Assembly (NCBI GenBank): GCA_020438845.1
Contig: JAGQTV010000112.1
Coordinates: 42,057 to 106,056, forward strand
DNA: 64,000 nucleotides
Source: Mycobacterium sp.
Lineage (GTDB): Bacteria > Actinomycetota > Actinomycetes > Mycobacteriales > Mycobacteriaceae
Direction of reading: 5' to 3'
Shown: positions 50,297 through 58,815 of the stretch, one piece after another
Numbering within the stretch: the first letter of the stretch is position 1
How the letters are laid out: each line of letters opens with the position of its first letter
Program-made: the position numbers and the translations under genes
The notes under the pieces: generated by a model
What the model was told of the DNA's origin: nothing
The model's database searches: none
The model's input: only the letters and a program-made list of their open reading frames with translations

Positions 50297-51181
50297 TCAG
50301 GGGCTCACGACGCAGCGAAAACCGATGTGCGTGGTCGCACTGTCTTGGGACTGCGGCGAGCGCGCGGCCGGCCGATAGCGGTGACAATACTCCGGCGCGC
50401 ACAGATGCGAACCGCCCTTGAGAGCCTGGATCAGGCCCGGATCGGGTTCGGAGGAAGTTGGGCAGCACGAATTGGACTGCGCGAGCTGGTGATGGCCGGA
50501 GTACTTGGTGGTGGTCCATTCCCAGACGTTGCCGATCATGTCCACCAGCCCGAAGCCGTTGGAGGCAAACGTGCCCACCGGGGAGGTACCCACCCAGCCC
50601 AGCGCCCCGTCGTTTCGGTAGGGAAACCGACCCTGCCAGGTGTTGGCCATCAGCCGCCCGTCGACCCGGGGCTCGTCCCCCCAGGCGTAAGTCGTGGTCG
50701 ACCCGGCCCGCGCCGCGTACTCCCACTCCGCCTCGGTGGGCAACCGCCGGCCCGCCCAGGCGGCGTACGCACCGGCGTCGGGGTAGGCGACCTGCACGAC
50801 GGGGTGATCTTCCCTGCCGGCGATGTCGCTTCCGACCCCGAACGGCGCCCGCCAGTGCGCACCGGGCGCCCAGTCCCACCACTGACGCCAATCGCTGAGG
50901 TTCACAGGGCCCGGAGTTCTGCGGAAGACCAGGGCACCGGGCCGCAAATCCTCCTCCGCGACACCCGGATACAACGCCGGGTCCAGCGGTCGTTCGGCGA
51001 CGGTGACGTAGCCGGTGGCATCGACGAATTCCGCAAACTGACGGTTGGTCACCGGGTGACGTTCGATTGCGAATGCCGCCACGGTCGCCGTGTGGATCGG
51101 AGCTTCCTCGGGGTAGAAACTCGTCGAACCCATGCGAAACGACCCGCCGGGCAGTTCGACCAGTTCAGTCAGCACTGACAT
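50297..51181 (-). CDS. formylglycine-generating enzyme (sulfatase activator)
   Basis: Oxidises the active-site Cys of type I sulfatases to C-alpha-formylglycine. The 294 residues have the N-terminal VELPGGSFRMGSTSFYPEEA, RLPTEAEWEYAARAG and the catalytic pair in GGSHLCAPEYCHRYRPAAR, ending GFRCVVSP. Its ATG overlaps the stop of the sulfatase gene by one base, so enzyme and substrate are made together. The homologous pair in M. tuberculosis is Rv0712 with AtsA (Rv0711). Confidence 0.95.
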   Translation of the reverse strand: MSVLTELVELPGGSFRMGSTSFYPEEAPIHTATVAAFAIERHPVTNRQFAEFVDATGYVTVAERPLDPALYPGVAEEDLRPGALVFRRTPGPVNLSDWRQWWDWAPGAHWRAPFGVGSDIAGREDHPVVQVAYPDAGAYAAWAGRRLPTEAEWEYAARAGSTTTYAWGDEPRVDGRLMANTWQGRFPYRNDGALGWVGTSPVGTFASNGFGLVDMIGNVWEWTTTKYSGHHQLAQSNSCCPTSSEPDPGLIQALKGGSHLCAPEYCHRYRPAARSPQSQDSATTHIGFRCVVSP

Positions 51182-53532
51182 CAGTCCCGTGCGAACGCGG
51201 CCGCCAGTTCACGTTCCCGGTCGACGTAGGGCGCACCCGAGACGTCGACCACCGCCTTAGCGATGACACCGCCGGTGAACGGATACGGTGCGGTGTACGC
51301 CTGGGACACCGGCTGACCGATGTTGCGGCCCACTTCCACTCCCCCGCCGGCCAACCCGAAGATGAACGGGTGGGCTTTCACGTTCGACTGCGTGGCGACC
51401 GCAGCCCCGTCAATGTAGAGGGTGGCGTCGCCGACCGGGGTGTGAGTGCCCTCGACCGTCCCGGTTCTGGCGTAACCGACGCCGAGGATGTGATCGCCCA
51501 AGGGCACCGGATCGGGTGCGATCACCCGTTGTTCCAATTCGCCGAAGAAGTTGTAGACGAACTGAAGCTTTCCGTCCTCGATGAAAAGAACGTATCCGCC
51601 GTGTCCGGCACCTTGCTTCAACAGCACGCCGCTGACATCGGCGCTATGGATGGTCACTTCCGCCAGCACGGAGAAGGAGCGTCCGAGAATGTTGACGCAC
51701 GCCCCGACCGGCACAGGCGCGGTGTGCGGGTAGTAGGTGTAACTAGTCCGCTCGCCGCCGAGCGTCGGCCGGGTGCGTCCAACCATCTCGAACATGCTCA
51801 GATCCGACAAGGGCAAGCCGTTGTACTTCTCGGCTTCGGCGAACCACAAAGCCTGTAACTCGGCCAGTTTGTCCGGGTGTTCAGCTGCCAGATCCCGGCA
51901 TTGACTGCGGTCGTTCTCGATGTGGAACAACTCCCAGCGGTCCTTGTCGAAGTTCGACCACCCGGACGGAGATGCGGCGTGCACCGTGTTCGCGAACCAC
52001 CCTTTGTGCCATATCCCGCGGGTGCCGAGCATGGTGTAGAACTGGGTCTCCTTACCGGTATCGGCATCCGGATCAGCAAGGGCCGCTTTAAAACTCACTC
52101 CGTCCAGCGGCTTTTGGGGGATTCCCTTCACGGATTCGGGCGGGCTGATGCCGACCAGGTCGTACACCGTCGGAGTGATGTCGCAGACGTTGATGTAGTT
52201 GTCCCGAACTTCGCCGTGAGCGGAAATTCCCGTGGGCCACGAGACGATGGCACTGTCTGCAATCCCGCCTTCGTGGGAGGCGTAACGCTTGTAGAGCTTG
52301 TAGGGGGTGTTGAACGCCATCGCCCAACCAATGGGGTAGTGGTTGTAGGTGGACGGCAAGCCCAGTTCGTCGTAGAACCGCATGCTGTCCTCGACGGTGT
52401 CGACGTAGCCGTTGAAGAATTTGGCCTCGTTGACCGAACCGTTGGGTCCTCCCTCACCGCTGGCGCCGTTGTCGCCGATCACGACGACGATCGTGTTGTC
52501 CAGCTGACCGGATTCCTCCAGATAGTCCAGGACCCGGCCGATCTGGGCGTCGGTGTAGGACAGGAATCCGGCGAAGACTTCCGCCATCCGGGCGAAGAGC
52601 CGCTTTTCCTCGTCGGACAACGAGTCCCAGGGCCGCACCGTGTCCTGCAACGGCCACGGCTGCCCGTTGGGTCCTTTGACATCCAGATACGGATTGACCG
52701 GTGACAATTCCGTCCCGGCCGGCACGATGCCGAGGTTCTTCTGGTTTTCCAGCACGATCTCGCGATAACGCTCGTAGCCCATATCGAACTTGCCCGCGTA
52801 GCGATCAGACCATTCCTTGAACACGTGATGCGGTGCATGACCGGCCCCTGGGCACAGGTAGGTGAACCACGGCTTGCCCGGCGCGACCTGTGTGGAGTCG
52901 CGGATGAATTCGATCGCTTTGTCAGCCAGGTCCTTCGAGAGGTGGTACCCCTGCTCCGGGGTCGCCGGCGCCTCCACCGGATGGTTGTCGTAGACCAGCT
53001 CCGGGTACCACTGGTCGGTCTCCCCGCCCATGAAGCCATAGAACCGTTCGAAGCCCCGCGACAGCGGCCAGTGCCGACGGGTGGCGGCGAGATTGGACTC
53101 CTCGATGGGCGTCAGATGCCATTTGCCGACGCAGTAGGTGTTCCAGCCGCGTTCGGCCAGCACCTCCGAGATCAGCGCGGTGTCGTGGGGGATGCGTCCG
53201 TTGTTGCCGGGAAATCCTTCGGTGAACTCCTCGACCATGGCCATGCCGACTGTCGTCGCGTTGCGCCCGGTCAACAGCGATGCACGAGTTGGCGAGCACA
53301 ACGCAGTGGTGTGGAACTGGCTCAGCCGTACCCCACGCTCGGCGATGCGGCTCATCGCCGGCATCTCCACCAGGCCGCCGAAGCAGTCCCAGGTGGCGAT
53401 GCCGACGTCGTCCCACACCACGTAGAGCACGTTCGGCGCGTTCTCCGGAGCAGTCGGTGGCGCGTACGGGCCCCAGTCGGGTTCGGAGTCACGGATGTCG
53501 AGGGCGATCGTGCCCTGGAACTCAGCTGCCAT
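51181..53532 (-). CDS. atsA: type I arylsulfatase
   Basis: Sulfate ester hydrolase of 783 residues, no signal peptide. The metal site includes YVVWDDVGIATWDC. The formylglycine motif CSPTRASLLTGR gives the Cys converted by the adjacent activator. GKWHLTP and the second metal-ligand strand VVIGDNGASGEGG follow. The C-terminal 200 residues form a beta-rich domain. The 5' neighbour MPT63 is divergent, 105 bp away. Confidence 0.95.
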   Translation of the reverse strand: MAAEFQGTIALDIRDSEPDWGPYAPPTAPENAPNVLYVVWDDVGIATWDCFGGLVEMPAMSRIAERGVRLSQFHTTALCSPTRASLLTGRNATTVGMAMVEEFTEGFPGNNGRIPHDTALISEVLAERGWNTYCVGKWHLTPIEESNLAATRRHWPLSRGFERFYGFMGGETDQWYPELVYDNHPVEAPATPEQGYHLSKDLADKAIEFIRDSTQVAPGKPWFTYLCPGAGHAPHHVFKEWSDRYAGKFDMGYERYREIVLENQKNLGIVPAGTELSPVNPYLDVKGPNGQPWPLQDTVRPWDSLSDEEKRLFARMAEVFAGFLSYTDAQIGRVLDYLEESGQLDNTIVVVIGDNGASGEGGPNGSVNEAKFFNGYVDTVEDSMRFYDELGLPSTYNHYPIGWAMAFNTPYKLYKRYASHEGGIADSAIVSWPTGISAHGEVRDNYINVCDITPTVYDLVGISPPESVKGIPQKPLDGVSFKAALADPDADTGKETQFYTMLGTRGIWHKGWFANTVHAASPSGWSNFDKDRWELFHIENDRSQCRDLAAEHPDKLAELQALWFAEAEKYNGLPLSDLSMFEMVGRTRPTLGGERTSYTYYPHTAPVPVGACVNILGRSFSVLAEVTIHSADVSGVLLKQGAGHGGYVLFIEDGKLQFVYNFFGELEQRVIAPDPVPLGDHILGVGYARTGTVEGTHTPVGDATLYIDGAAVATQSNVKAHPFIFGLAGGGVEVGRNIGQPVSQAYTAPYPFTGGVIAKAVVDVSGAPYVDRERELAAAFARD

Positions 53533-53553: not shown

Positions 53554-53580
53554 GGTTTGGAACCCCCGGGGAAGGGCTAT
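53554..53580 (+). promoter_or_regulatory. possible SigF-like promoter of the MPT63 gene
   Basis: GGTTT (53554-53558), a 15-base spacer and GGGCTAT (53574-53580) resemble the mycobacterial SigF pattern GGTTT-N15-GGGTAT apart from one inserted C. It lies about 60 bp before the MPT63 start. The match is imperfect. Confidence 0.25.
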
Positions 53581-53637
53581 CCAGTTCCAGCATCACTTTC
53601 ACCGTCGCTTCCAGCAAGGATTCGTAAAGGAGAGATC

Positions 53638-54111
53638 GTGAGACCTACCAGTGCACTGAAAACGGCTGCCGTCCTGATGACGGCCATCGGAATCGCCGGC
53701 GCCCCGGCCGCGTCGGCGGCGTACCCGATCGTCGGCAAACTCGGCTCCACGCTGACAATGACCGACTCCGTCGGCCAAGTGACCCTGAGCTGGAACGTCG
53801 GCAACCTCAAACCCAGCAACGACGTCATGCCGGGGTATCCGGTGGCGGGCAAGTTGTGGGAGGCCACGGCAACGGTCCGGGCCATCAGCGGTCCGGTTAC
53901 CCCGGCCATCTCGCAGTTCAACGCGGTGGCCCCCAACCAGGCTGCCTACCGTGTGCTGTGGGAGGTCGCCAGCCCGGTCAACATCAGCGGAGCGACGATC
54001 CCCCAGGGGGCGCAATCGACCGGCAAGATCCACTTCGATGTGACGGGGCCGCCACCCACGACGGTGACGATGAACAACGGCATGGAAGACCTGATGATCT
54101 GGGGACCCTGA
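53638..54111 (+). CDS. MPT63-family secreted immunogenic protein
   Basis: Small secreted beta-sandwich protein of 157 residues, homologous to the M. tuberculosis culture-filtrate antigen MPT63. The GTG at 53638 follows AAAGGAGAGA. A signal peptide ends in ASAAYP (mature start about AYPIVGKLGSTLTMTD). The conserved core MPGYPVAGKLWEATATV and the end TMNNGMEDLMIWGP match the family nearly throughout. Molecular function unknown. It is convergent with the DUF5709 gene. Confidence 0.93.
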   Translation: MRPTSALKTAAVLMTAIGIAGAPAASAAYPIVGKLGSTLTMTDSVGQVTLSWNVGNLKPSNDVMPGYPVAGKLWEATATVRAISGPVTPAISQFNAVAPNQAAYRVLWEVASPVNISGATIPQGAQSTGKIHFDVTGPPPTTVTMNNGMEDLMIWGP

Positions 54112-54145
54112 GTCCCAACGGTTCTGAGTCCCCAGCTGTCTGGCG

Positions 54146-54619
54146 TCAGTCCTCGGCGTCGGACCAGTCCTCGATGTCGATGATGTGAACTGCCGCCTCC
54201 TCCGCCGAGGCCGCTCCCCCGCTGATGCCGACGTCCTCGGCCACCAGGTCGCTTTCGGTGTCTTCACCGAAACCCAGGTCAGGCGCAACCAGTCGACCCG
54301 CTCGCACACGGCCGATCTCCCGGTGCCCGGGGAACTCGGCTTCGCGTTCAGCTGCGTCGGACTGCCACTGCTCATCTTCGTCCAGAGGGTCACCGATCCG
54401 GCTAGCCGGATCGGGTTCCTCCTCAGCGAGCCGCTGATCGAGGGTTTCCGTCGACCCGAAAGCTGCCCGACTGAAGGACCGTTCGGGTGGGGAATAACCC
54501 TCATCGAGAACGTCGGAGACGCCTCGGTCGATCAGCGTGTCCTCCGAAGGAAGCTGATTCTCATCGGCCACGCTGTACTCGCCCGCCGCCGGGCCCGAAC
54601 CGAACTCGCCGTTGCTCAT
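54146..54619 (-). CDS. DUF5709 family protein
   Basis: Acidic, probably disordered cytosolic protein of 157 residues. It has DTLIDRGVSDVLDEGYSPPE, a motif I associate with DUF5709 of Actinobacteria, then ETLDQRLAEEEPDPASRIGD and a C-terminal IIDIEDWSD. I start at the ATG at 54619 (MSNGEFGSG), which has AAGGAG five bases upstream. The GTG at 54625 overlaps that site. Function unknown. Confidence 0.83.
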   Translation of the reverse strand: MSNGEFGSGPAAGEYSVADENQLPSEDTLIDRGVSDVLDEGYSPPERSFSRAAFGSTETLDQRLAEEEPDPASRIGDPLDEDEQWQSDAAEREAEFPGHREIGRVRAGRLVAPDLGFGEDTESDLVAEDVGISGGAASAEEAAVHIIDIEDWSDAED

Positions 54620-54793
54620 AGACACTCCTTCTTCGACGCTCGCCCCGATCGCCGCGCCCGATTATCCGCTGACGTCCCGCTGACGGGTCAAGGGCCGTTG
54701 GTCATCGGCGTTTGAGCGGTTCGGACGGAGACGCCGCAGTCGTCTGAGCGGGCGTGTCACCGGCTGAGCGTGCCTGAACCACCCGCGCGCGGC

Positions 54794-54799
54794 TACTAT
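54794..54799 (+). promoter_or_regulatory. possible -10 box of the response-regulator gene
   Basis: TACTAT lies 40 bp before the GTG start of the response-regulator gene, in an otherwise featureless 219-bp region. No convincing -35 hexamer is seen, so this is a weak call. Confidence 0.25.
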
Positions 54800-54838
54800 C
54801 TGCAGACGTGACCGGCGGGACACCCCGAAAGACATGCC

Positions 54839-55531
54839 GTGGCAGCTAGGCAGTCGAAGTCGCCAGCACCTGGAACGAGCACCCGGGTGATCGTGGTCGA
54901 CGACGGCAGGCTTATCCGGGAATGCCTCGCCGCCCAACTCCGTGCAAACGGTGTCGCCGCGGGCGTCGCCTGGGACCTGCCATCGTTGTTCGCCCAGGTC
55001 GACGCGGGTCGGCCCGACGTCGTCCTGCTCAACGTGGGGACGCCGGACTACGCGACACTTCTTCCGGTCAGTCTGGATATCGACCCGGCTACGAAAGTCA
55101 TCGTTTTCGGCTTGTCGATGGACCGCGAGTCCGAGATCGTCGCGTCGGCTGAAGCGGGAGTCGCCGGGCTGCATCTGCGAACCGAATCGTTCGAGCACCT
55201 ACTCGCCTTGGTAGCCAATGCCGGGAAAGGCCAAGCGCAGTGCTCATCGGAGGTCTCGGCGATCCTGATGCGGCGGGTGTACGCCTTCGCGGTCCATGCA
55301 AATCCGGATTCGACGACCGATTCGCTGACTGCGCGGGAAACCGAGATCCTCGAACTGGTCGAGCAGGGACTGACCAACCAACAGATAGCCTCGCGTCTTA
55401 CCGTCACGGTCCACACAGTCAAGAACCACGTCCACAGCCTGCTGACCAAGTTGGGAGTCGGGTCCCGGACAGAGGCCGTCACGGTGTTCCGCGCGTCCAA
55501 GTACGCCAACCCGGACTTCGTCCAGAACTGA
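54839..55531 (+). CDS. LuxR-type regulator with degenerate receiver domain
   Basis: A 230-residue two-domain regulator. The receiver (about 15-128) keeps the acidic pair Asp21-Asp22 in VIVVDDGRL, but the phospho-acceptor position reads VVLLNVGTP, with Asn65 for Asp, and the conserved Lys region reads AGVAGLHLRT without Lys. Phosphorylation by the usual route should not occur. The C-terminal LuxR helix-turn-helix is intact: LTARETEILELVEQGLTNQQ and TVHTVKNHVHSLLTKLGVGS. It starts at a GTG (VAARQSKSPAP). The neighbour STAS gene converges on it with a 21-bp gap. Confidence 0.92.
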   Translation: MAARQSKSPAPGTSTRVIVVDDGRLIRECLAAQLRANGVAAGVAWDLPSLFAQVDAGRPDVVLLNVGTPDYATLLPVSLDIDPATKVIVFGLSMDRESEIVASAEAGVAGLHLRTESFEHLLALVANAGKGQAQCSSEVSAILMRRVYAFAVHANPDSTTDSLTARETEILELVEQGLTNQQIASRLTVTVHTVKNHVHSLLTKLGVGSRTEAVTVFRASKYANPDFVQN

Positions 55532-55552
55532 CGGCGTCGGTCGGGTACCGCG

Positions 55553-55915
55553 CTACTCTCGGGCACCCTCGATTCCGATCGGCTCGTCGAAAGCGTCCTC
55601 AGCCGACTCGTAAGACTTCAAGAGTTGGTTCAGATTGGTCAATTCCAGAACGGCTCTTGGCTGTTCCCCCGCAGCGGCGATCCTCAGGTCACCACCACAT
55701 TGCCGAGCTGCTTTCAGGCCGGCGATCAACGCGCCGAGACCGGACGAGTCGACGGTGTCGACTCCCGACAAATCAACCACCAGTCGGGCTTGCCCAGCCT
55801 CGACGAGGCTCTCAAGCTGCCCTCGCAACCCTGGGGCGGACGCCATGTTCAGACGTCCCTCGGGGCACACCACGACCACCCCGGAAGTGGTAATCCTCGT
55901 TGGCCACTCGGCCAT
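55553..55915 (-). CDS. STAS-domain anti-sigma factor antagonist
   Basis: A 120-residue SpoIIAA/RsbV-like protein. It shows VVVVCPEGRLNMASAPGLRG and VVDLSGVDTVDSSGLGALIA, where Ser57/Ser58 is the site phosphorylated by the anti-sigma kinase. Unphosphorylated, such proteins bind the anti-sigma factor and free the sigma factor. It is divergent from the SpoIIE-type phosphatase gene (204-bp gap), its likely activator. No anti-sigma kinase gene is in the window. Confidence 0.93.
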   Translation of the reverse strand: MAEWPTRITTSGVVVVCPEGRLNMASAPGLRGQLESLVEAGQARLVVDLSGVDTVDSSGLGALIAGLKAARQCGGDLRIAAAGEQPRAVLELTNLNQLLKSYESAEDAFDEPIGIEGARE

Positions 55916-56119
55916 GGTCGTCCTCCCTTGCCCACGTCAGGATAGCCGCACATCCCCAGACGACGCCTGATCAGCCAACCAGCGATTTTCCGGGGCGCCC
56001 GACCCCCCGACTGCTGTTAGCCTTCTTCGGGTGAGTGGGAAAAAGGCGCGCCGCGGCAATCGGCGGCCCCTGCATGGCCAAACCCGACGGGGTGATTCAC
56101 CCGGTCGATCTGACGCGCG

Positions 56120-58453
56120 GTGATCAATCAACTCGACAAGCAGCTGAAGCGGTTGCTACGGGGCCTGGGCGCACAATGCGCAGTGGTGTGGAGCAGCCAT
56201 CGCGATCCAGCCACCGGCACGGTGGTGAGCACCTGCCCACTCGGGCTGCTGGACAGCGGAACCGACTGGCCAACCCATAACGGGGTTTGCGAGTTTGCGA
56301 TGGAGCGTGACCCTGCGCGGCTGGCAACCCTGGTTCCCGCGCCGTTGCGCAACTCCCTCCCCACGCCGCCGCGGGCCGCCAGATCGTTCAAACTCGGGAA
56401 GGGAAATCTCCACCTGCTGGTCGTCTGGGACAACTCGGAAGCCAGCGGACCCCTCACCGAGGATCTGCAACAGCTGATTACCGAGGAACTCGGCTACCTG
56501 GCTCACCTCGTTGAAGAGGGACGTTTTCTCAAAGGGGAACTGACCCGCCTGCGCGCAGTGGTGAACGGACTGGATGACGCGGTGGTGTCGGTAGACACCG
56601 TCTTCCGGCATGCCACGCTGAACGAAGCCGCGGCGAAACTGTTTCAGCTGTCACCCGGCGAGGTCGAGGCCTACGACTTCGCCACTGCACTGACGGCACT
56701 GGCAAGCCGGGCGCTCAACTACGCCGATGTCGCCCAAGAGGCCAAGCGTCTGCATCTGGACCCGACGGCCCAGACCGACAGCGTCTGGAGATTCGCCGAG
56801 GAGCCCACCCATGTGCGGGTTTTCTCGACTCCGGTTAGCGATGGGACCTTCGACGGCCGGATCTGGGTGTTCTACGACGACTCGACGCTGCATCAGGCAC
56901 TTGAGGCCAGCGAGCACGCGCGCGCGGTGCTCCGCGCCTCCAGTGACGCAATGCTCGAGCCACAGGCTGAGATCGGCGCGGTGCGGGACGCGGACGGCAA
57001 AATCGTCGACTTCACCTTCCTTGAAGTCAACCGGGCAGCTTGCGAGTACCTGCAGTTGAGCCGCGACGATCTGGTCGGGACGACGGTGTTGGAGAGCTTT
57101 CCCAACGTGGACGGGTCGGGAATGCTGGCGCACTTCGTGCGGTGCGCTGAGTCCGGCGAACCGGCTGTTCTCGACGATTTCTACTATTTCAACGAGATTC
57201 TCGATGATGCCCGGCGATACGACATTCGGGCGGCCCAGATCTCGACCGAGCTGGTCAGCCTCACCTGGCGGGACGTCACGGAACGCTCCGAGGCGGCACG
57301 GATCATCGCGGAGTCCGAGGAGCGGTTCCGTCGGCTGATGGAGAACTCTGCTGTTGGCATGGCCCTGGTCACTCCAGACGGCGCCTACGACGTCGTGAAC
57401 GCCGCACTGTGCGAATTCCTCGGCCACGACGCCGACGCCCTGCGGGAGATGACCTGGATGGAAGTCACCGCCGCGGAGTATGTAGAAGCCGAACAAGAGA
57501 AGATCGCTGACATCGTCGCCGGCCGGCTCGACAGTTACCGGATGACTAAGCAGTACATCCATGCGGACGGGCATGCGATCTGGGGTGACATGTCCGTGAG
57601 CTGCATCCGCGGTGCGGACGGGCAAGTAAAAAACCTGATAAAGCAGATCATCGACGTCACAACCGAGGCCGAGCAGAACGCCAGCAACCTCATCCTGGCC
57701 AGCCGACTGCAAGAGCAGACCGACCGACTCATGGCCGAACTCAACAGTGCCTCGGCATACGTAGCGGCCCTGTTGCCGGGGGACCTCGACGGTCCGGTGG
57801 CGGTCACGTCGCGGTACCTACCCTCCGGGGAGTTGGCCGGCGATTGCTACGACTATTCCTGGGTGGGTGACGATCACCTACTGGTCTACCTACTCGACGT
57901 ATCAGGCCACGGAATCGCCCCGGCACTGGTCTCGATCTCGGTGCACAACATGCTGCGCTCGGCAGCGCTGCCACGCGAGACTCTCCTGTCCCCCGACAAA
58001 GTGCTGGCTCAACTCAACCACAATTTTCCGATGGAACGACAGGGCGGAAACTACTTCACCATCTGGTACGGCGTCTACCAGCAGTCCACCGGCACATTGC
58101 GTTACGCCAGTGCAGGCCACCCTCCGGCGCTGCTGTTCGCAACCCCCGGCGAGGAACCCATCCAACTCGCCACTGCAACGGTGCCGGTGGGAATGTTCGA
58201 AGACACCGCGTTCACGGCGAGCAGCGTCGCAGTACCCGAAGGCTCTCAACTGCTGCTGTACAGCGACGGCGCCTACGAATGGGCGCTGCCGGGCGGCCAA
58301 AGCTGGTCGTTGGCAGACTTCATCACGCTGTGCTCCCACCATGCGCAATCCGAGGACTGGTCACTGGGCGCTTTCGTGGAAGAGCTCCGAACCCACACTC
58401 CCGCAGGGCGCTTCGACGACGACTGCTCGCTCGTGCGGGTGGACTTTGGCTGA
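56120..58453 (+). CDS. multi-PAS SpoIIE/PP2C-type serine phosphatase
   Basis: Cytosolic sensor phosphatase of 777 residues. An N-terminal 130-residue domain of uncertain, GAF-like type is followed by three PAS modules (about 140-255, 265-385, 400-520; for example ERFRRLMENSAVGMALVTPD), a linking helix and a PP2C/SpoIIE domain (about 555-777). The latter has metal-binding GDCYD (574-578), LLDVSGHGIAPALVSI, RYASAGHPPALL, LLYSDGAYEWA and DDDCSLVRVDFG. The GTG at 56120 is the first in-frame start after a stop. It probably dephosphorylates the adjacent STAS protein. Transmembrane segments are absent. Confidence 0.93.
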   Translation: MINQLDKQLKRLLRGLGAQCAVVWSSHRDPATGTVVSTCPLGLLDSGTDWPTHNGVCEFAMERDPARLATLVPAPLRNSLPTPPRAARSFKLGKGNLHLLVVWDNSEASGPLTEDLQQLITEELGYLAHLVEEGRFLKGELTRLRAVVNGLDDAVVSVDTVFRHATLNEAAAKLFQLSPGEVEAYDFATALTALASRALNYADVAQEAKRLHLDPTAQTDSVWRFAEEPTHVRVFSTPVSDGTFDGRIWVFYDDSTLHQALEASEHARAVLRASSDAMLEPQAEIGAVRDADGKIVDFTFLEVNRAACEYLQLSRDDLVGTTVLESFPNVDGSGMLAHFVRCAESGEPAVLDDFYYFNEILDDARRYDIRAAQISTELVSLTWRDVTERSEAARIIAESEERFRRLMENSAVGMALVTPDGAYDVVNAALCEFLGHDADALREMTWMEVTAAEYVEAEQEKIADIVAGRLDSYRMTKQYIHADGHAIWGDMSVSCIRGADGQVKNLIKQIIDVTTEAEQNASNLILASRLQEQTDRLMAELNSASAYVAALLPGDLDGPVAVTSRYLPSGELAGDCYDYSWVGDDHLLVYLLDVSGHGIAPALVSISVHNMLRSAALPRETLLSPDKVLAQLNHNFPMERQGGNYFTIWYGVYQQSTGTLRYASAGHPPALLFATPGEEPIQLATATVPVGMFEDTAFTASSVAVPEGSQLLLYSDGAYEWALPGGQSWSLADFITLCSHHAQSEDWSLGAFVEELRTHTPAGRFDDDCSLVRVDFG

Positions 58454-58458
58454 GAACC

Positions 58459-58495
58459 AAAATGCCCACCGCTTTCGTTGAGCGGTGGGCATTTT
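58459..58495. terminator. strong bidirectional terminator
   Basis: A 15-bp perfect inverted repeat (58459-58473 and 58481-58495, loop TTCGTTG) starts with AAAA and ends with TTTT, so it works as an intrinsic terminator in both directions. It sits exactly between the convergent phosphatase gene and rpsQ, ending the S10 transcript and insulating the signalling block. Confidence 0.93.
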
Positions 58496-58509: not shown

Positions 58510-58815
58510 CTACTTCGCCTTCTCCAGGATCTCGACCAGACGCCAGCGCTTGGTGGCCGACAGCGGCCGGGTCTCCATCAGCGAGACACGGTCGCCGATG
58601 CCGGCAACGCCGTCCTCATCGTGCGCCTTGACCTTCTTGGTGGTGCGGATGATCTTGCCGTACTTGGGGTGCTGCACGCGCGACTCGAGTTCGACAACGA
58701 TGGTCTTCTCCATCTTGTCGCTCACGACGTAGCCGATCGCAGTCTTACGACGGCCGCGCGGCTTCTCGGTAGCCGGGGTGTGCTTGGGACCCTTGGTCCC
58801 TGTGGTTTCAGCCAT
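58510..58815 (-). CDS. rpsQ: 30S ribosomal protein S17
   Basis: 16S rRNA-binding OB-fold protein of 101 residues with a Lys/Thr-rich extension before the core [20 protein letters not shown] and the end [16 protein letters not shown]. Last gene of the S10 transcript here. rplN, normally next, is about 8.5 kb further on. Confidence 0.98.

What the first reader, a model, noticed from the sequence alone, without database searches (positions are those of the whole stretch)
53554..58495. Inserted signalling block next to the S10 genes: PAS/SpoIIE phosphatase, STAS antagonist and a phosphorylation-dead LuxR regulator
In M. tuberculosis atsA (Rv0711) directly follows rpsQ (Rv0710). Here about 5 kb separates them, holding MPT63, DUF5709, a LuxR regulator, a STAS anti-sigma antagonist and a three-PAS SpoIIE phosphatase, closed by a strong hairpin. 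Phosphatase plus STAS are two of the three parts of a partner switch; the anti-sigma kinase is absent. The block could be a PAS-sensed input into a distant sigma factor. MPT63 has an imperfect SigF-like promoter.
Basis: partly seen in the sequence, partly recalled or inferred. Interest (0 to 1): 0.72.

Follow-up and report, generated by a model that had tools for sequence, protein, structure and literature searches.

The report
Partner-switch cassette that lost its kinases
A mycobacterial signalling switch beside the ribosomal protein genes still has its sensor phosphatase and its target protein but lacks the kinases that relatives keep in the same spot, and elsewhere in the genus the same switch proteins are built into operons with a cellulose-synthase-like enzyme.

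Summary
In detail: atsA and rpsQ are separated by MPT63, DUF5709, a receiver-dead LuxR regulator, a STAS antagonist and a PAS-SpoIIE phosphatase, closed by a strong hairpin. The genes alternate in strand, so they are not one operon. Only LuxR, STAS and, in part, the phosphatase form a conserved unit. In all 9 other loci found with STAS and a convergent LuxR (7 distinct lineages; at least 5 of the 9 beside rpsQ or atsA), one or two HATPase kinases lie between them; the window has 21 bp there. So the kinases were lost. Three same-family kinases survive elsewhere in this genome, one beside a STAS 68% identical to the window's. The nearest relative also has a second SigF gene in its cassette. MPT63 is probably SigF-driven, but its place here is not conserved. 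Unexpectedly, in 32 of 64 loci across the genus this STAS-kinase pair ends an operon with a cellulose-synthase-like enzyme that seems to lack PilZ, once (G318) in this same interval, and some relatives fuse the kinase to a glycosyltransferase. A polysaccharide output is therefore at least as likely as a sigma factor. Kinase loss is well supported; action in trans and the output are inferred.

The parts
51181..53532 (-). atsA arylsulfatase, left flank (formylglycine-generating-enzyme-like gene follows at 50297-51181)
   Evidence: Pfam Sulfatase 1e-64, FGE-sulfatase 1.2e-83
53555..53580 (+). SigF-like promoter GTTT-N16-GGCTAT (one mismatch to GTTT-N16-GGGTAT) upstream of MPT63
   Evidence: consensus as in PMC4694148 Table 1
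53638..54111 (+). MPT63-family secreted protein (DUF1942)
   Evidence: Pfam DUF1942 1.8e-47; orthologues elsewhere in relatives
54146..54625 (-). DUF5709 protein
   Evidence: Pfam DUF5709 4.4e-23; shared in place with G347
54705..54797 (.). 93-bp spacer where the collinear G347 contig carries about 1.35 kb with a SigF paralogue
   Evidence: BLASTN collinearity window 54644-54704 <-> G347 147-205 and 54798-55516 <-> 1558-2269; TIGR02980 278 bits, cut-off 234
54839..55531 (+). LuxR/NarL-type regulator with degenerate receiver (Asn65 for Asp)
   Evidence: GerE 1.8e-18, Response_reg under its cut-off; alignments
55532..55552 (.). 21-bp junction where relatives have one or two kinase genes; the window STAS runs on into a C-terminal tail not seen in the aligned relatives
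55553..55915 (-). STAS protein of the anti-sigma-antagonist type, Ser57 expected as phosphoacceptor
   Evidence: Pfam STAS 1.6e-17, TIGR00377 over cut-off; 68% to the C90 STAS; Ser at this position in 64 of 64 family members
56120..58453 (+). PAS/SpoIIE (PP2C) phosphatase, 777 aa, with Asp575, 578, 593, 716, 767, 768 of the catalytic motifs present
   Evidence: Pfam SpoIIE 6.2e-39 and PAS; model pLDDT 84, pTM 0.38
58459..58495 (.). terminator-like hairpin between phosphatase and convergent rpsQ
58510..58815 (-). rpsQ, right flank (last gene of the S10 operon, named from its sequence and neighbours)
   Evidence: sequence; query

Best explanation
The LuxR-STAS-phosphatase part of the block is a kinase-less derivative of a mycobacterial partner-switch cassette. 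Shown by comparison: relatives carry STAS and one or two kinases on one strand, convergent with the same pseudo-receiver LuxR, several of them beside rpsQ and atsA and some with a PAS-SpoIIE phosphatase divergent from STAS; in the window the kinases between LuxR and STAS are gone while STAS and phosphatase keep their key residues. Inferred: the pair now works in trans. The PAS phosphatase dephosphorylates Ser57 of the STAS protein, which then binds one of the three surviving same-family kinases (best candidate the one on contig C90, partner of a 68% identical STAS) and pulls it off its target; that kinase re-phosphorylates STAS when the signal ends. Output, inferred: surface polysaccharide synthesis (my weight 0.4), SigF (0.3), other or none (0.3). 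MPT63 and DUF5709 are neighbours, not parts.
For: Of 10 STAS loci with a convergent LuxR, 9 have one or two kinases directly downstream of STAS and only the window has none. Three of the nine are identical in the aligned LuxR and STAS (G182, G209, G258), so 7 lineages. Five of the nine (G392, G391, G318, G258, G209) show rpsQ, atsA or both on the contig; three contigs are too short to show a flank (G182, G347, G212) and G284 showed neither in 19.5 kb. Two more relatives cut by contig ends also have kinases at this place (G258:C258; G032, split on two contigs). G347 is collinear with the window on both sides of the two gaps. Of 66 STAS-family places, 57 have an adjacent kinase; the 9 without are the window and eight others at 62% identity or less to the C90 STAS. 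Ser57 is kept in 64 of 64 aligned STAS proteins, the kinase-less ones included; the phosphatase aspartates are intact. Own genome: 3 same-family kinases.
Against: Only one genome shows this loss, and it is a draft (118 contigs), so a local misassembly is not excluded. Two LuxR relatives stand without STAS or kinase in the stretch read: G003:C17 (72-74%) and G347:C209 (62-64%), so LuxR is not tied to the kinase everywhere. The phosphatase is not in every rpsQ-locus cassette (none seen between rpsQ and STAS in G392, G391 and G318). The window STAS departs at 4 of 52 columns that are 90% conserved among kinase-linked homologues, more than 36 of 38 of those, which fits relaxed constraint as well as a new partner. 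No interaction was tested. The grouping of the C90 kinase with the STAS-adjacent kinase of G182/G209/G258 is weak (89/75). No hit to the GT2 synthase was found in the own-genome stretches that I examined; the rest of the genome was not searched for it.
Confidence: 0.6

Rival explanations
1. Input into SigF: dephosphorylated STAS binds the anti-SigF kinase encoded beside sigF on contig C95 and frees SigF, which transcribes MPT63 among others.
For: One SigF over cut-off, at C95:3384-4055, with a HATPase gene just upstream. G347 has a SigF paralogue inside the cassette besides its ordinary SigF. In M. smegmatis a STAS protein (RsfB) acts this way with a separate kinase RsbW2 and a PP2C phosphatase RsfR (PMC7693655 and PMC10950880, abstracts and passages). 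MPT63 of M. smegmatis falls strongly in a sigF mutant (PMC4694148, passage of Table 1); a SigF-type box with at most one mismatch lies within 100 bp upstream of MPT63 in four of five relatives at 78-84% identity (G392 perfect; G182, G209, G258 near-identical to each other; G032 none).
Against: One cassette only (G347) was seen with a SigF gene inside; the SigF paralogues of G167 and G170 have no member of this STAS-kinase family in the stretch read. MPT63 adjacency is not conserved. No SigF-type box with at most one mismatch in the spacers before LuxR or between STAS and phosphatase. More distant MPT63 homologues of G284 and G170 and a second own copy have no such box.
Confidence: 0.3
2. The switch controls a surface-polysaccharide enzyme, not transcription: the kinase or the STAS protein gates a cellulose-synthase-like GT2, and the window copy is a spoke of that circuit.
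For: 32 of 64 STAS loci have a cellulose-synthase-like GT2 on the same strand directly upstream of STAS (distance between aligned ends -21 to 21 bp in 30, 36 and 132 bp in the other two), with a homologue of a GH26-like protein in 30 and a SpoIIE phosphatase in 31 of the 32 stretches. The G318 copy is in this same rpsQ-atsA interval (L069). GT2-HATPase_c_2 fusions in G391, G003, G182, G209 and G032. In five synthases checked the TED and QRLRW motifs and a DAD are present and no PilZ-type motif follows.
Against: The other 32 loci, the window and most of its clade among them, have no such GT2 within 3.5 kb; none in the own-genome stretches read. Gene neighbourhood is not interaction.
Confidence: 0.35
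3. A decaying remnant: with the kinases gone the STAS protein is permanently unphosphorylated or idle and the phosphatase has no substrate.
For: Six kinase-less STAS proteins depart at 15, 14, 13, 8, 8 and (window) 4 of 52 conserved columns, against at most 3 in 36 of 38 kinase-linked ones, the other two at 7 and 9. The phosphatase region of G347 is matched in separate pieces.
Against: All three window genes are open, phospho-site and catalytic residues are kept, and the window STAS is the least changed of the six.
Confidence: 0.25

Closest known systems
M. smegmatis rsfB locus (RsfB STAS, RsbW2 kinase, RsfR PP2C phosphatase, MSMEG_6128 receiver-HTH protein) of the SigF partner switch (PMC7693655, PMC10950880; abstracts and passages seen)
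   Same: STAS followed by a separate small kinase, a receiver-HTH gene on the opposite strand in the locus, and a PP2C phosphatase as input; [quoted passage not shown]
   Different: No kinase in the window; the phosphatase has PAS domains rather than a receiver; whether the window STAS is an RsfB orthologue was not tested against a named RsfB
Rv1364c of M. tuberculosis (PAS, phosphatase, kinase and STAS in one chain; described in passages of PMC7693655)
   Same: Same domain types; its phosphatase-kinase structure (PDB 3ke6) is among the structural matches of the window phosphatase
   Different: Separate genes, more PAS domains, no kinase domain
RsbU/RsbV/RsbW and SpoIIE/SpoIIAA/SpoIIAB of Bacillus (recalled)
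   Same: Phosphatase plus STAS with a phosphorylatable serine
   Different: No kinase and no sigma gene in the window locus
SypA/SypE of Vibrio fischeri (PMC4517449, start of abstract in the search listing only)
   Same: A STAS protein that controls biofilm with a polysaccharide locus by an unknown mechanism
   Different: Other organism; nothing compared here by sequence

Membership tests
RsbU-RsbV-RsbW type partner switch | PP2C (SpoIIE) phosphatase with metal-binding aspartates | tested here: met
   Asp575, 578, 593, 716, 767, 768 (which of them bind metal is recalled); fold matches to PP2C domains
RsbU-RsbV-RsbW type partner switch | STAS antagonist with phosphorylatable Ser | tested here: met
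   DSSGLG, TIGR00377 over cut-off
RsbU-RsbV-RsbW type partner switch | HATPase kinase encoded in the locus | tested here: not met
   none in the window; present in 9 of 9 other LuxR-convergent loci
RsbU-RsbV-RsbW type partner switch | Ser phosphorylation, dephosphorylation and partner exchange | not testable with these tools
   needs biochemistry
SigF partner switch (RsfB/RsbW2/RsfR) | STAS is an RsfB orthologue that binds the anti-SigF kinase | not tested
   no named RsfB sequence compared; no interaction test
SigF regulon (MPT63) | SigF-type promoter upstream | tested here: met
   one mismatch; box in four of five relatives at 78-84% identity, three of these near-identical to each other; expression not tested in this organism
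Atypical (phosphorylation-independent) LuxR response regulator | receiver without phosphoacceptor Asp plus GerE HTH | tested here: met
   Asn65, GerE 1.8e-18
BcsA cellulose synthase (for the GT2 linked in relatives) | GT2 DxD, TED and QxxRW motifs | tested here: met
   DAD, TED and QRLRW in all five proteins checked; BcsA chains of the PDB at 2e-64 for the L081 protein; NCBIfam CelA hit under its cut-off
BcsA cellulose synthase (for the GT2 linked in relatives) | C-terminal PilZ c-di-GMP domain | tested here: not met
   no Pfam PilZ hit in three proteins; no RxxxR or DxSxxG-type motif after residue 450 in five proteins (motifs recalled)

The most novel reading that the evidence does not exclude
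Mycobacteria use a STAS-kinase-PP2C partner switch to gate a PilZ-less cellulose-synthase-like enzyme directly, in place of c-di-GMP; in the clade of the window this switch was copied, fused (GT2-kinase) and rewired so that several PAS-sensing phosphatase/STAS spokes without own kinases, the window locus among them, feed a few shared kinases.
Probability: 0.33. Interest if true: 0.75.

Novelty: new variant of a known kind. Interest (0 to 1): 0.55.

Why it matters
It turns a vague 'two of three parts' into a loss that can be placed: relatives show where the missing kinases stood. If the pair still works, it is a test case for how partner switches share kinases. The unexpected link of the same STAS-kinase pair to a cellulose-synthase-like enzyme across the genus gives a concrete, testable output that is not a sigma factor. 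A full-text search for cellulose synthase, Mycobacterium, anti-sigma factor antagonist and phosphatase together returned no paper, and the listings of two further searches showed none that describes the link by title or start of abstract; these cover open-licence papers only.

Tried and rejected
Rejected: 'one inserted five-gene block' (strands alternate; MPT63 lies elsewhere in relatives). Rejected: 'the receiver died locally' (13 of 13 relatives covering the site lack the Asp). Considered: the extra SigF paralogues of G167 and G170 as partners of a like cassette; no STAS or kinase of this family lies in the stretches read (G170:C40 has a STAS at 44% to another own STAS). Considered: a SigF-like box in G347 at 215; it points to the 3' end of the sigma gene, not its start, and was dropped. 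Led nowhere: the STAS tree, mostly unresolved (14 of 21 inner branches open); the only named relative of the phosphatase, MAG Mycobacterium sp. AQU-06 (L009), with no STAS or kinase marker match on its 8.3-kb contig; literature searches.

My ORF caller was a simple one of my own. The MPT63 marker in my scripts up to one search was out of frame (start 53639), so its absence there says nothing; it was corrected from then on and used corrected. One search covered 46 of the 66 STAS places, another 19, and one (G258:C258, STAS cut by the contig end) was read. One search counted 64 STAS loci: the cut one was in a fetched stretch but too short for its rule, as was a 52-aa piece in G182. One search used 44 distinct STAS sequences, before the last 19 were fetched. 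One search used 40 of the 58 genomes with rpsQ; G000 and G032 were left out on purpose and 16 were not read. One search counts kinases only downstream of STAS, so the third kinase domain of G391, upstream of STAS, is not in its count. Gene names given by eye from N-termini are marked so.
Full report
What is there. Between atsA (51181-53532, -) and rpsQ (58510-58815, -) lie five genes: MPT63 family (53638-54111, +), DUF5709 (54146-54625, -), a LuxR-type regulator (54839-55531, +), a STAS protein (55553-55915, -) and a 777-aa SpoIIE phosphatase (56120-58453, +). Strands alternate, so this is not one operon. A 16-bp hairpin at 58459-58495 separates the convergent phosphatase and rpsQ. Pfam finds two PAS regions and SpoIIE in the phosphatase; the model (pLDDT 84, pTM 0.38, so domain packing is unsure) shows a third PAS-like fold and an N-terminal part that I read as GAF-like. 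RssB, SpoIIE, Rv1364c, SiaA and RsbX phosphatase chains are among its structural matches, and the aspartates of the PP2C motifs are present. The LuxR receiver has Asn65 where the phosphoacceptor Asp is expected, and its Pfam receiver score is under the cut-off.

Genome context. The window is part of a 4.53-Mb draft genome of 118 contigs, 99.8% complete, of the genus Mycobacterium by its genes and its named relative. It has 11 SpoIIE hits, 10 STAS hits, some in long frames such as transporters, 14 HATPase_c_2 hits and one SigF over cut-off, next to a HATPase gene on contig C95. A full cassette on contig C90 has kinase, STAS (68% identical to the window STAS) and a divergent SpoIIE phosphatase (52% over 386 residues). 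Two further kinases of the same family, on C86 and C28, have no STAS match in the stretches read. C33 has a phosphatase with a STAS behind it and no kinase; no STAS or kinase was seen beside the phosphatases of C81 and C15.

The missing kinases. Relatives of the LuxR (57-85%) and STAS (65-77%) occur together in a small set of genomes; a further search of 397 relatives in 55 genera found LuxR at E<=1e-70 only in five genomes, all of this genus. By script, 10 STAS loci have a convergent LuxR; 9 have one or two kinases downstream of STAS and only the window has none. G182, G209 and G258 are identical in the aligned LuxR and STAS, which leaves seven lineages. In G392, G318 and G209 both rpsQ and atsA are on the contig, in G391 and G258 rpsQ; the G182, G347 and G212 contigs are too short to show a flank, and G284 shows neither in 19.5 kb. 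G258:C258 and G032 (split over two contigs) also have kinases at this place. G391 has a further kinase domain, joined to a glycosyltransferase domain, before STAS. Not fitting: the LuxR relatives of G003:C17 and G347:C209 stand without STAS or kinase in the stretch read, and the phosphatase is missing between rpsQ and STAS in G392, G391 and G318. The nearest relative, G347 (LuxR 85%), is collinear with the window on both sides of two gaps: a kinase pair in about 0.9 kb against 21 bp, and a SigF paralogue in about 1.35 kb against 93 bp. The other cassettes showed no SigF match, so the kinases are ancestral and lost here, while the sigma gene may be a gain in G347 or a loss here. The window STAS ends in a tail not seen in the aligned relatives. 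G347 is a fragmented draft (780 contigs, 6% contamination), and its phosphatase matches in separate pieces.

How general. Of 66 places with this STAS family, 57 have a kinase directly behind; 9 do not: the window, C33, G032:C278, G347:C559, G209:C28, G106:C274, G210:C60, G330:C152 and a partial one in G182. Seven of the nine are in genomes that also have close relatives of the phosphatase or LuxR; G210 and G330 I did not place. The eight others are at 62% identity or less to the C90 STAS, the window at 68%. Six kinase-less STAS proteins depart at more of 52 conserved columns (15, 14, 13, 8, 8, window 4) than kinase-linked ones (36 of 38 at most 3; two at 7 and 9). The serine expected to be phosphorylated is present in 64 of 64, one of which (G032) lacks the preceding Asp.

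Is the spot special? In 40 other genomes of the genus none of the stretches after rpsQ matched any of these genes; 31 had atsA in the stretch, 12 within 500 bp and 19 at 1.5-7.1 kb. The interval varies across the genus, and the M. tuberculosis layout (recalled) is one state of it.

MPT63 and SigF. A SigF-type box lies upstream of MPT63. Alone it is within chance for a window of this size. But four of the five orthologues at 78-84% identity, on other contigs of relatives, also have a box with at most one mismatch within 100 bp (G392 perfect; G182, G209 and G258 near-identical to each other; G032 none); two more distant homologues (G284, G170) and a second own copy have none. In M. smegmatis the MPT63 gene MSMEG_5617 is listed with log2 changes of -3.63 and -5.99 in a sigF mutant and with such a box (PMC4694148, passage of Table 1). 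So MPT63 is probably a SigF target, but its place beside the switch was seen only in the window.

A turn. Elsewhere in the genus the STAS-kinase pair sits at the end of an operon-like row: 32 of 64 STAS loci have a cellulose-synthase-like GT2 (about 640-710 aa) on the same strand directly before STAS, aligned ends -21 to 21 bp apart in 30 and 36 and 132 bp in two; a homologue of a GH26-like protein is in 30 and a SpoIIE phosphatase in 31 of these stretches. The GT2 of L081 matches BcsA chains of the PDB (2e-64) and NCBIfam CelA under its cut-off; in five proteins checked DAD, TED and QRLRW motifs are kept and no PilZ-type motif follows. G318 has such a GT2 (69%) in the very interval of the window: rpsQ, GT2, STAS, kinase, convergent LuxR, atsA (L069). 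Five proteins of five relatives join a GT2 domain to a kinase of this family. A polysaccharide output is therefore at least as well supported by neighbourhood as SigF. Against it, the other 32 loci, including the window and most of its clade, have no such GT2 within 3.5 kb, and none was found in the own-genome stretches examined; I could not search the rest.

Known parallels. In M. smegmatis RsfB is phosphorylated by RsbW2, a kinase that does not bind SigF, and dephosphorylated by RsfR; unphosphorylated RsfB binds RsbW1 and so relieves SigF (PMC7693655, PMC10950880; abstracts and passages). A receiver-HTH gene, MSMEG_6128, lies in that locus; it was not phosphorylated by RsfS and its deletion did not change the SigF reporter. 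The window cassette is like this in parts and layout, but I did not test orthology to RsfB.

Verdict. Shown: the genes, the cassette in relatives, the loss of the kinases (in one draft genome), the retained key residues, the GT2 rows in the genus. Inferred: action in trans through a surviving kinase (C90 first), the signal by PAS, and the output (polysaccharide 0.4, SigF 0.3, other or none 0.3).

Noticed in passing
L068:1667-3061, L148:234-1577, L150:2438-3748, L151:7617-8897, L153:256-1596: Proteins that join a family-2 glycosyltransferase to an anti-sigma-type HATPase_c_2 kinase, in five genomes related to the window's; a further copy in L149 matched in two pieces.
   Followed up: partly
L081:5335-10177 and like stretches in 32 loci: Row of GH26-like gene, SpoIIE phosphatase, cellulose-synthase-like GT2 without PilZ, STAS and kinase across the genus.
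   Followed up: partly
L047 (G106:C64): The S10 operon is flanked on both sides by relatives of the window phosphatase; the one near rpsQ has an internal stop.
   Followed up: no
G000:C28:18990-23953 (L041): Three SpoIIE phosphatase genes in tandem in the same genome.
   Followed up: no
L163-L165, L168: Relatives of the LuxR (40-53%) in larger genomes, some in tandem, near GlmS-like and lipid-transfer-like genes (names by eye from N-termini); in the eight copies whose printed part covers the phosphoacceptor site it is Asn (6) or Ser (2); a 35% relative in L171 has Asp.
   Followed up: no
L074:1347-1883: A haem-NO-binding (HNOB) protein gene next to the phosphatase of G212's cassette, a possible gas sensor.
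   Followed up: no
L143 (G167), L144 and L145 (G170): Extra SigF paralogues without this STAS-kinase family in the stretch read.
   Followed up: no
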